A stretch of DNA of 40,811 nt from positions 1-40,811 of IMG/VR virus record IMGVR_UViG_3300027841_000030, one strand, 5' to 3'. Under the pieces are notes generated by a model, which did not search any database, had not been told where the DNA came from, and was given only the letters and a program-made list of their open reading frames with translations. The DNA comes from a virus. Positions 16,196-22,431 of the stretch are shown in pieces; position 1 is the stretch's first letter; every line of letters starts with the position of its first letter. A program made the position numbers and the translations under genes.

Positions 16196-16224
16196 ATTAT
16201 ATCATCATACAACATGTATGTCAA
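16196..16224 (-). promoter_or_regulatory. Late-operon sigma-70 promoter, perfect consensus
   Basis: Read leftward, TTGACA (16224-16219) and TATAAT (16201-16196) are separated by exactly 17 bases. Both hexamers are perfect. Transcription should begin near 16189 and run into the holin, terminase and structural genes. No UP element or operator palindrome overlaps it directly, but ACAAT/ATTGT palindromes lie just upstream. Confidence 0.85.
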
Positions 16225-16264
16225 TAGCTAAAAGCTAATTAAATCACAATATGTATTAATATTT

Positions 16265-16285
16265 ACAATATTGTTACAATTGTAA
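16265..16285. promoter_or_regulatory. Paired ACAAT/ATTGT palindromes, candidate operators
   Basis: ACAATATTGT (16265-16274) abuts the 12-bp perfect palindrome TTACAATTGTAA (16274-16285). They lie between the leftward late promoter and the rightward promoter at 16357. The core ACAATTGT recurs twice around the promoter at 19313-19341. This suggests a shared DNA-binding regulator, which I could not identify in the window. Confidence 0.45.
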
Positions 16286-16356
16286 TTTAATATAATACTA
16301 ACAATAATTTACATAGTGTTTCAATGCAACAGAAGCCCCGAAAGCGTATGTTGCTA

Positions 16357-16385
16357 TTGACAACACGTTTTTATTATGCTATTTT
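16357..16385 (+). promoter_or_regulatory. Rightward sigma-70 promoter with extended -10
   Basis: TTGACA (16357-16362), a 17-base spacer, then TATTTT (16380-16385) preceded by TG at -15/-14 (TGC-TATTTT). The transcript would start near 16392, at the edge of the A+T tract, and read through the paired hairpins at 16595-16669. Confidence 0.65.
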
Positions 16386-16594
16386 AGTAATACTAGTACT
16401 AGTACTATAGTACTAAGTACTAAGTAATAATATATATATTATTAAATATATATATATTATTACGTATATAATATATAATATATTATTATAAATATATTAT
16501 ATATTAGTACTAAGTATTAGTAATATTATATTTATTAATAATATAATATTACGTATACAATATATTTTTATTTAAGTAAAAATATATTAATATT
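16386..16594. other. A+T tract with palindromes, candidate replication origin
   Basis: About 209 bases with almost no G or C apart from short AGTACT-type steps. It contains tandem TAGTACTA units (16386-16425), a perfect 11-bp inverted repeat (16521-16531 / 16541-16551), and the direct repeat ATTACGTATA at 16459-16468 and 16548-16557. It sits between divergent transcription units, as expected for an easily melted origin. No gene is visible from 16225 to 17180. Origin function is inference. Confidence 0.45.
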
Positions 16595-16632
16595 ATGTGT
16601 AATACACAAATAAGCTACAGTGTATTACACAT
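16595..16632. repeat. 13-bp inverted repeat with AAATAAGCT loop (hairpin 1)
   Basis: Perfect arms ATGTGTAATACAC and GTGTATTACACAT flank a 12-base loop beginning AAATAAGCT. Each arm is itself nearly palindromic (GTGTAATACAC, GTGTATTACAC) with centres 23 bases apart, so it could also be a pair of operator sites. The loop sequence is repeated in the next hairpin. Confidence 0.6.
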
Positions 16633-18408: not shown

Positions 18409-18644
18409 ATAAGAATGATTATCAATTAATTAAAGGCTGGTGGGTTAATTACACACAGCTTTTGGCTGTTCAAGACAAGACAATAAAGACTAGCTTTCTT
18501 AAATTCCATTACAAAAAGCTTAATGTAACACCCTTCGGGAGTTGGAAATTCATAGCAACACATAAATTAAACAATGATGTATTAGACACACTACGCTGGG
18601 AATTTTTACAACCAAAACTTATAGAAAGGAAAACCAATGGATGA
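18381..18644 (+). CDS. Early hypothetical protein next to the antitoxin-like gene
   Basis: An 87-residue basic, Trp-rich protein (KKWWLNKND, KGWWVNY, FGSWKFIATHK, LRWEFLQPK) with TAAGGAG before its ATG. It overlaps the following antitoxin-like gene by eight bases, so the two are coupled. It shows no RES-domain residues, so it is not an obvious toxin partner. No family recognised. Confidence 0.65.
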   Translation: MYSFKKWWLNKNDYQLIKGWWVNYTQLLAVQDKTIKTSFLKFHYKKLNVTPFGSWKFIATHKLNNDVLDTLRWEFLQPKLIERKTNG

Positions 18645-18819
18645 ATTCATAAATGGTAGTGAACAAATATGTGCTCTATTGTACAATAAATTTGGGGGAA
18701 TTAAGCTGTTAGCCTACACATGGCTCTACACTAATAACCCTCAGCTTAATAACTATCCCCCTATAGCTTTAATACGTCTCGGAAAATTAGAGCACGTAAA
18801 GGCTCTTCTTTCCTCATAA
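18637..18819 (+). CDS. Stand-alone MbcA/ParS/Xre toxin-binding domain (antitoxin mimic)
   Basis: A 60-residue protein that is almost exactly the DUF2384 antitoxin toxin-binding domain. It reads CALLYNKFGG, then LLAYTWLYTNNPQLNNYPPI and GKLEHVKALLSS, matching the family's F-G ... W-L ... N-P-x-L ... P-x-x-L ... G-x-x-x-x-V-x-x-L-L pattern. Family antitoxins normally carry an amino-terminal helix-turn-helix and pair with RES-domain NAD-degrading toxins. Here the DNA-binding part and the toxin are both absent. It starts within the end of the previous gene, with GAAAGGA as ribosome-binding site. The likely role, neutralising a host toxin early in infection, is inference. Confidence 0.7.
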   Translation: MDEFINGSEQICALLYNKFGGIKLLAYTWLYTNNPQLNNYPPIALIRLGKLEHVKALLSS

Positions 18820-21266: not shown

Positions 21267-21917
21267 TTATAAAGATTGTGTAGCCCAATTACTAAGTCTA
21301 CTGCGCACACCTTCAGGGAGTTTAATGTATTTAATAAATTCTGCTCCACTAGCCTCTGATGCAGCGCACAATACAGACAATGCATTGTCAGCTTTATTAA
21401 GCTTTGTATTATCAATTTGATCTGTGTCTCCTAGGCATATAACCTTTGTTCCTTCCCCGGCTCTTGTTAACAACACTTTTAATTGTTGTGTTGTAATATT
21501 CTGCACTTCATCAATAATAACTATTCTATTCTGGAAACTGCGTCCACGCATAAATTCTATGGCTCTAATCCTCACTTTACTCTCAATAACCACTTTAGTC
21601 ATGTCTGAATTGCCGTATAAAGCCTCAATATTGTCATATAAGCCCCCGCACCAACTTTTCATCTTATCCTCTTCTGTTCCGGGTAAAAACCCCATCCCAG
21701 AATTACCTACAGCTACAGGTGCTCTTGTAAATACAACCTCTGTATACATATGTAAGTCAAATATTTGATAGAGGGCTGTTGCAATAGCTAGGAATGTTTT
21801 ACCACTCCCGGCGCACCCATCCATCACCACTAAATCTATTTCTGCGTCCAATAGGGCTTTTATAGCTTCTTTCTGTTGCGGGTTTTTAGCTTTAATATCA
21901 AAGGATTTTTTAGCCAT
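21267..21917 (-). CDS. phoH: PhoH-like ATPase
   Basis: A 216-residue P-loop protein. It has KNPQQKEAIKALLDAEIDLV at the start, Walker A GCAGSGKT near 35, the PhoH phrase TRAPVAVGNSGMGFLPGTEE near 85, Walker B IVIIDEVQNIT near 135 and LGDTDQID near 163. PhoH proteins are common in phages and are thought to be RNA-helicase-like ATPases; the role in infection is not settled. Length is normal for phage PhoH. Confidence 0.9.
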   Translation of the reverse strand: MAKKSFDIKAKNPQQKEAIKALLDAEIDLVVMDGCAGSGKTFLAIATALYQIFDLHMYTEVVFTRAPVAVGNSGMGFLPGTEEDKMKSWCGGLYDNIEALYGNSDMTKVVIESKVRIRAIEFMRGRSFQNRIVIIDEVQNITTQQLKVLLTRAGEGTKVICLGDTDQIDNTKLNKADNALSVLCAASEASGAEFIKYIKLPEGVRSRLSNWATQSL

Positions 21918-21945: not shown

Positions 21946-22095
21946 TCATTCTTGGTCTAACTCCTTGTCCAAATCAAACTCAACACCATCTATTAAAGAT
22001 TCAATTCGATCTAGAAAAGCTTGACTTATAACAGTTAAGTGCTGAGGATTCTGTCTTATATCTTCAGCTATAAAATCTAAAAAACTATCTATCAT
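21946..22095 (-). CDS. Stand-alone PrlF antitoxin C-terminal domain (antitoxin mimic)
   Basis: A 49-residue protein: FLDFIAEDIRQNP, then FLDRIESLIDGVEFDLD near the end. This follows the C-terminal half of PrlF-type antitoxins (F-L-x-F-L-A-x-D-I-x-x-x-P-x-x-L ... R-L-x-x-L-x-x-x-V-E-V-D-L-D). In full antitoxins the amino half is an AbrB-type DNA-binding domain; here it is missing and no YhaV toxin is nearby. GGAG lies six bases before the ATG, and the start overlaps the previous gene. It probably binds and blocks a host YhaV-type RNase; this is inference from the domain alone. Confidence 0.55.
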   Translation of the reverse strand: MIDSFLDFIAEDIRQNPQHLTVISQAFLDRIESLIDGVEFDLDKELDQE

Positions 22096-22300
22096 CTGAA
22101 GCTCCTAGTCCGTCCAATATAAAGTCTATGTACTCATCAGCTTCTTCAATTTCTATATTTAATAAGTCGTCTTCCCAGGCTCTTAATCGATACTCAGCCC
22201 TTTGTTTAGTCCACTTATTAGTTTGTTCATCTGCTATTATCCATTTTAATGCTTCTATTCTTTTCTCTACTCCCTCTCGGGTATTAGTTGGTAAGCTCAT
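22085..22300 (-). CDS. Hypothetical helical protein
   Basis: A 71-residue charged protein (MSLPTNTREGVEKRIEALKW, ending IDFILDGLGASDDR) with GAGGAGAAATC before the ATG. It overlaps the PrlF-like gene by 11 bases, so the two are translationally linked. No family recognised. Confidence 0.65.
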   Translation of the reverse strand: MSLPTNTREGVEKRIEALKWIIADEQTNKWTKQRAEYRLRAWEDDLLNIEIEEADEYIDFILDGLGASDDR

Positions 22301-22314
22301 AGTGATTTCTCCTC

Positions 22315-22431
22315 TTATGCTCCTAGTTTTTTGTCTATTTGGCGTATTTTTGCACGTATTTTCGCTACATTTGCAGCATATCTAGCTGCACTTCGTTCAA
22401 ATTTCTTCATTATTTCTACAACTTCAGTCAT
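22315..22431 (-). CDS. Very small basic helical peptide
   Basis: A 38-residue peptide (MTEVVEIMKKFERSAARYAA, then AKIRAKIRQIDKKLGA). Its ATG overlaps the end of the metallopeptidase gene in ATGACTGA, so translation is probably coupled. A second methionine lies seven codons in. The strong basic amphipathic helix could bind nucleic acid. Confidence 0.45.
   Translation of the reverse strand: MTEVVEIMKKFERSAARYAANVAKIRAKIRQIDKKLGA

What the first reader, a model, noticed from the sequence alone, without database searches (positions are those of the whole stretch)
21946..22095. Stand-alone PrlF C-terminal domain: second antitoxin mimic in the same phage
The 49-residue protein follows the C-terminal half of PrlF antitoxins (F-L-x-F-I-A-x-D-I ... 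R-I-x-x-L-x-x-x-V-E-F-D-L-D) but lacks the AbrB-like DNA-binding half. Together with the DUF2384-only protein this makes two unrelated antitoxin fragments that keep only the toxin-facing part. This suggests a strategy of collecting trimmed antitoxins as a counter-defence set.
Basis: partly seen in the sequence, partly recalled or inferred. Interest (0 to 1): 0.85.

Follow-up and report, generated by a model that had tools for sequence, protein, structure and literature searches.

The report
Phage-borne toxin-facing half of PrlF
This virus of bacteria carries a 49-residue gene that is the rear half of a bacterial antitoxin without its DNA-binding front half; unrelated giant phages carry the same half, so it probably disarms a bacterial RNA-cutting toxin during infection, though this has not been tested in the laboratory.

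Summary
Window 21946-22095 (-) encodes 49 residues that match only profile positions 52-98 of 99 of Pfam PrlF_antitoxin (41.8 bits, cut-off 32, E 1.2e-10). No AbrB/MazE half exists in frame or elsewhere in the record, and no YhaV toxin. The frame has a good ribosome-binding site and overlaps the gene before it.

The architecture recurs. Jumbo Mimasvirus phages (GAP32, Kaldavass, XbC2) and a 58-kb viral contig encode 51-61-residue C-only PrlF; CBB-type phages fuse it to a non-AbrB domain. None has YhaV beside it. In the 58-kb contig it lies among RNA-repair genes. Rhodobacter-type prophages instead carry complete PrlF-YhaV. In 49 bacterial loci, 44 have YhaV, always with the AbrB half; the three C-only loci lack YhaV. 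Mimasvirus copies are under purifying selection. E. coli prlF has AGGAGG-8-ATG at codon 66, exactly at this boundary, and a published internal ribosome-profiling signal.

Best reading: a trimmed antitoxin that neutralises a YhaV-type mRNase as counter-defence. Binding is inferred; structure prediction and co-variation did not settle which half faces the toxin. The 'collection' claim is only suggestive: the second fragment (DUF2384) is below its cut-off.

The parts
21946..22095 (-). 49-aa stand-alone PrlF C-terminal domain
   Evidence: PF15937 41.8 bits (cut-off 32), profile 52-98/99; NF007429 profile 65-111; frame only 52 codons stop to stop
22102..22106 (-). Shine-Dalgarno AGGAG, 6 nt before the ATG
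   Evidence: sequence ..GGACTAGGAGCTTCAG-ATG
22085..22300 (-). 71-aa upstream ORF of unknown family whose end overlaps the start of the PrlF-C gene by 11 nt (likely translational coupling); not an AbrB domain
21267..21917 (-). PhoH-like ATPase, next gene downstream, 28-nt gap
   Evidence: PF02562 E 3e-45; nearest IMG/VR PhoH relatives, 57% identical, lack the PrlF-C gene
18637..18819 (+). 60-aa Xre/MbcA/ParS (DUF2384) toxin-binding-domain-like protein without a helix-turn-helix part; second candidate antitoxin fragment, in the opposing operon
   Evidence: PF09722 22.1 bits, below cut-off 24.5, E 1.6e-4

Best explanation
The gene encodes a trimmed PrlF antitoxin. During infection the 49-residue protein (two short helices and an acidic tail) binds a YhaV-family toxin of the host, a RelE-superfamily mRNase, and keeps it inactive when phage takeover depletes the host's unstable PrlF. 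Because the AbrB-like half is missing, it should neutralise without binding or repressing the host prlF-yhaV operator and without being tied to host autoregulation. Shown: homology, trimming, absence of a toxin, recurrence in other phages, purifying selection in Mimasvirus. Inferred: binding of YhaV, that the host carries a YhaV-type toxin, and that this toxin acts against the phage.
For: Family match over cut-off for the C half only. C-only or non-AbrB-fused PrlF in GAP32, Kaldavass, XbC2, CBB, in two 371-kb jumbo contigs and a 58-kb contig, none with YhaV beside it. Viral carriers of the complete form are prophages that also carry YhaV (L030, L031, L033, L141). In 49 bacterial loci all 44 with YhaV keep the AbrB half, and the 3 C-only loci have no YhaV. 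C-only is rare in bacteria: 1 hit over cut-off among 398 Pseudomonadota genomes against about 21 full-length. dN/dS 0.15-0.38 in Mimasvirus pairs with unsaturated dS. The positions conserved in full antitoxins (F, L, F, D, P, L, G, V, D) are kept in the window protein. Neighbourhood: Mimasvirus copies lie in an early, tRNA-rich region, often next to tRNA-Lys; in L140 the gene sits between an RNA-ligase/phosphoesterase protein and a T4-Rnl1-like RNA ligase with a kinase-like gene. E. coli prlF has an internal AGGAGG-8-ATG at codon 66 at the same boundary and a reported internal ribosome-profiling signal (PMC10327210). RelBc peptide precedent, PDB 2kc8. Viral lone antitoxins are an established counter-defence: SMV1 gp44 (PMC11065993), Gp145/AdfB (PMC11481870).
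Against: No experiment. No solved PrlF structure. AlphaFold2 on PrlF-YhaV read-through fusions leaves docking unresolved (pTM 0.59 full; 0.69 C-half plus YhaV). Mirror-tree partial correlations do not favour the C half over the N half (0.35 against 0.44). The host is unknown. PhoH, capsid and terminase relatives, mostly fragments, lack the gene. No direct report of YhaV defending against phage was found.
Confidence: 0.6

Rival explanations
1. It works through the Lon protease: PrlF is reported to activate Lon when over-expressed, so the phage may use a PrlF-derived peptide to stimulate or redirect Lon rather than to bind a toxin.
For: Reviews record Lon activation by prlF expression and by prlF1 by an unknown mechanism (PMC5408214; PMC4963847).
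Against: Nothing links the C half to Lon. Conserved positions match those of the antitoxin family across bacteria that keep YhaV next to PrlF, which points to a partner encoded there.
Confidence: 0.1
2. It neutralises another RelE-superfamily or otherwise related toxin, not YhaV itself.
For: C-only proteins lie apart from YhaV in every case examined; some bacterial C-only genes neighbour RelE/HigB-type or helix-turn-helix genes.
Against: The domain is otherwise tied to YhaV: 44 of 49 bacterial loci.
Confidence: 0.15
3. It is a host-transcription effector or phage regulator, as suggested for the PrlF-domain protein of phage CBB.
For: Proposed in the CBB genome paper (PMC5259590); early region.
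Against: The DNA-binding AbrB half is absent from CBB, GAP32 and the window protein.
Confidence: 0.06
4. It is a non-functional remnant of a captured prlF-yhaV module.
For: The nearest sampled relatives lack it; an isolated fragment is also seen on a Salmonella plasmid.
Against: It has its own start, a good ribosome-binding site and coupling to the gene before it. The same boundary recurs in other phages, and Mimasvirus copies have dN/dS 0.15-0.38.
Confidence: 0.09

Closest known systems
PrlF (SohA) antitoxin of the prlF-yhaV type II toxin-antitoxin system, Pfam PF15937 / NF007429
   Same: The whole C-terminal half, including F-L-x-F, D, N-P, L, G-V and D-L-D positions
   Different: No AbrB/MazE-like DNA-binding and dimerisation half; no yhaV next to it
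Mimasvirus small proteins: GAP32 gp457, Kaldavass CDS0155, XbC2_499, CBB gp503 (= CBB_476)
   Same: The same C-half only, no toxin, early accessory region; the PrlF domain was noted for CBB (PMC5259590)
   Different: Only about 32-38% identical to the window protein; 60-61 aa with longer acidic tail; CBB has an extra non-AbrB N-domain; never described as a trimmed antitoxin in the papers found
Virus-encoded lone antitoxins and mimics: SMV1 gp44 (Phd), ICP1 Gp145/AdfB (DarG mimic), T4 Dmd, S-CREM1 YefM/TacA/MazE
   Same: Antitoxin function without a toxin in a lytic virus
   Different: Described as whole homologues or unrelated folds; here only the presumed toxin-side half of a two-domain antitoxin is kept, and the target family is YhaV
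RpnS, intragenic antitoxins of Rpn proteins (PMC10327210)
   Same: A small C-terminal product acts as antitoxin; the paper notes an internal ribosome-profiling signal in prlF
   Different: RpnS blocks its own longer product; the phage gene is a separate free-standing gene

Membership tests
PrlF antitoxin (PF15937) | C-terminal PrlF region over the curated cut-off | tested here: met
   41.8 bits against 32, profile 52-98/99
PrlF antitoxin (PF15937) | N-terminal AbrB/MazE-like DNA-binding half | tested here: not met
   profile 1-51 unmatched; frame only 52 codons; no PF04014 match in the record at E 10
PrlF antitoxin (PF15937) | Cognate yhaV toxin next to it | tested here: not met
   no PF11663 match in the 40.8-kb record
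PrlF antitoxin (PF15937) | Neutralises YhaV | not testable with these tools
   needs expression and binding assays; AlphaFold fusions inconclusive
PrlF antitoxin (PF15937) | Represses its own operon through DNA binding | not testable with these tools
   DNA-binding half absent, so not expected
Phage-encoded antitoxin (counter-defence) | Antitoxin homologue in a virus without the toxin | tested here: met
   same in GAP32, Kaldavass, XbC2, CBB, L137, L139 and L140 within the stretches examined
Phage-encoded antitoxin (counter-defence) | Maintained by selection and recurrent in phages | tested here: met
   Mimasvirus dN/dS 0.15-0.38; further phages. For the window's own lineage not testable: no close relative with the gene
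Phage-encoded antitoxin (counter-defence) | Restores phage growth on a toxin-bearing host | not testable with these tools
   experiment needed
Second trimmed antitoxin in this phage: Xre/MbcA/ParS C-terminal domain (PF09722) | Domain over the curated cut-off | tested here: inconclusive
   22.1 bits against 24.5, E 1.6e-4

The most novel reading that the evidence does not exclude
Trimmed antitoxins are a class of phage counter-defence protein: viruses keep only the toxin-binding module of two-domain antitoxins, which neutralises without operator binding. For PrlF the same short form is also made by E. coli itself from an internal start at codon 66, so the phage protein copies a natural, so far uncharacterised isoform.
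Probability: 0.3. Interest if true: 0.82.

Novelty: new variant of a known kind. Interest (0 to 1): 0.62.

Why it matters
No direct report of YhaV-PrlF acting in phage defence was found in the papers held. A lytic-type phage gene that keeps only the presumed YhaV-binding half of PrlF, also found in jumbo phages and next to RNA-repair genes, would be indirect evidence that YhaV-type mRNases act against phages. It gives a minimal, easily expressed inhibitor to test this. The coincidence with an internal start in E. coli prlF, in a stretch matched at 95% identity or more in 5,110 of 5,426 complete E. coli genomes, suggests a hidden short PrlF isoform and a simple experiment to find it.

Tried and rejected
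Overlooked upstream AbrB half: rejected. A toxin in the record: none. PHROGs shows no known phage family for the protein (E >= 0.08). No PrlF structure in PDB by sequence. IMG/VR scans with the window protein and the DNA polymerase found no relatives; PhoH, terminase and capsid scans found relatives without the gene, mostly fragments. A MAFFT alignment mixing PrlF-only and YhaV-only rows misplaced the PrlF rows and was rebuilt. Mirror-tree test of which PrlF half follows YhaV: inconclusive. Tree of C-halves: 54 columns, too few; one origin of the C-only forms is not rejected (p 0.096), nor is a window-plus-Mimasvirus clade (p 0.61), so the number of trimming events is unknown. Rfam and tRNA scans of the window: nothing. 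Schmidt et al. 2007 and the two ribosome-profiling papers were not held.

Full report
What is there. The reported frame is real: 21946-22095 on the minus strand, 49 codons, ATG, preceded by AGGAG six bases upstream. It lies in a row of small minus-strand genes. The 71-codon gene before it overlaps its start by 11 bases, and a PhoH-like gene follows after 28 bases. Pfam finds PrlF_antitoxin at 41.8 bits (cut-off 32), covering profile positions 52-98 of 99. NCBIfam's PrlF equivalog model agrees on the same half. This is not a chance resemblance.

What is missing. The open frame is 52 codons from stop to stop. No AbrB/MazE domain is found anywhere in the 40,811-base virus record even at E 10, and no YhaV toxin. 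The record is classed as a linear virus sequence, possibly incomplete.

The same trimming elsewhere. tblastn of the phage protein against 50,697 phage records finds only Mimasvirus-type jumbo phages. In GAP32, Kaldavass and XbC2 the protein is 60-61 residues and C-only; the annotated 102-aa start of XbC2_499 runs into a tRNA gene, while an ATG aligned with the others lies at the domain boundary. In CBB the half is fused to an unrelated N-domain, and two 371-kb metagenomic jumbo contigs share that fusion, one of them just below the cut-off at 30.4 bits. A separate 58-kb viral contig has a 51-aa C-only PrlF over the cut-off (35.7 bits), between a protein with phosphoesterase and RNA-ligase domains and a T4-Rnl1-like RNA ligase followed by a kinase-like gene. 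A further phage contig has a weak relative (L036, 19.9 bits, below cut-off). By contrast, Rhodobacter-type prophages carry a complete PrlF with YhaV directly downstream.

Bacterial background. Of 49 genome loci with the C half, 44 have YhaV, and all 44 keep the AbrB half; the three C-only loci (L076, L081, L085) have no YhaV, and two loci with an N half lack YhaV (L067, L080). By my own arithmetic the chance that all three C-only loci fall among the five without YhaV is about 5 in 10,000, ignoring relatedness. In 398 Pseudomonadota genomes, about 21 full-length PrlF genes were found against one C-only hit over cut-off. C-only genes are thus rare in bacteria but are the usual form in the lytic-type phages examined. 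Two bacterial genomes with a C-only copy also hold a full PrlF.

Selection. Pairwise dN/dS among the Mimasvirus copies is 0.15-0.38 where dS is not saturated, so the half is kept as a protein. The window protein retains the family's invariant positions. No close relative of the window phage with the gene was found, so its own selection cannot be measured.

An unexpected link. The E. coli prlF gene contains AGGAGG, eight bases, then ATG at codon 66, exactly where the phage protein begins in the alignment. The Rpn paper mentions a clear internal ribosome-profiling signal for prlF (PMC10327210). The position of that signal could not be checked because the primary papers were not held. E. coli may therefore make a 46-residue C-only PrlF. 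This arrangement is not general: most other genera lack a start with a ribosome-binding site there.

Structure. AlphaFold2 was run on stop-read-through PrlF-YhaV fusions taken from bacterial loci. It shows YhaV with a RelE-type fold, an N-half resembling AbrB/MazE (weak Foldseek hits), and the C half as two helices (55-70 and 80-90) plus a low-confidence tail. The docking of the C half is not resolved (pTM 0.59; 0.69 for C-half plus YhaV). Distance correlations do not distinguish the halves. Hence 'toxin-facing' remains inference, resting on RelE-superfamily precedent (the RelB C-terminal peptide bound to RelE, 2kc8), on the C-only natural forms, and on established knowledge that AbrB-type N-domains of antitoxins bind DNA.

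Mechanism. The most likely role is to replace or supplement the host's PrlF while the phage shuts off host synthesis, holding a YhaV-type mRNase inactive. Trimming the AbrB half would avoid operator binding. This is like SMV1 gp44, AdfB and Dmd in function, but it keeps only half of a known antitoxin. The CBB authors suggested a transcription role for their PrlF-domain protein (PMC5259590); the absence of the DNA-binding half speaks against that.

The 'collection'. The DUF2384 fragment at 18637-18819 is real but sub-threshold (22.1 against 24.5 bits). Independent support for combining toxin-side fragments comes from L076, a bacterial 106-aa protein that joins PrlF-C (47.1 bits) to the C-terminal part of TacA (23.2 bits, cut-off 21), with neither DNA-binding half. 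That locus is not evidently viral. The general strategy is therefore plausible, not shown.

Noticed in passing
L076:1105-1425 (Sterolibacterium MAG): A 106-aa protein joins the C half of PrlF to the C-terminal part of TacA antitoxins, both over Pfam cut-offs and both without DNA-binding halves: a natural tandem of two trimmed antitoxins.
   Followed up: partly
L140:8-3156 (58-kb viral contig IMGVR_UViG_3300004634_000001): C-only PrlF gene inside an RNA-repair cluster: phosphoesterase plus RNA ligase, T4-type RNA ligase 1, kinase-like gene.
   Followed up: partly
L011:1678-1698 (E. coli prlF codons 60-66): AGGAGG-8-ATG internal start at the PrlF domain boundary.
   Followed up: partly
window 18637-18819 (+): 60-aa DUF2384 (Xre/MbcA/ParS C-terminal) only protein, below the Pfam cut-off.
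   Followed up: partly
window 22424-22918 (-): Putative M48-type metallopeptidase; NCBIfam also gives a partial, far-below-cut-off match to the phage-exclusion protease Lit (E 1.2e-5).
   Followed up: no
window 25055-26002 (-): 315-aa ORF that by eye looks like a papain-type cysteine peptidase with a leading hydrophobic stretch (QGQHGSCVVFA), unusual in a phage of this size; not tested.
   Followed up: no
window 16196-16600: Perfect extended sigma-70 promoter (TTGACA-17-TATAAT, minus strand 16224-16196) beside a very A+T-rich palindromic stretch between the divergent gene blocks; possible early-promoter or origin region.
   Followed up: no
L010:2405-2635 (Salmonella enterica plasmid CP053320): 76-aa C-only PrlF relative downstream of a HigB/HigA-like pair; could be a decayed prlF or an orphan trimmed form.
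   Followed up: partly
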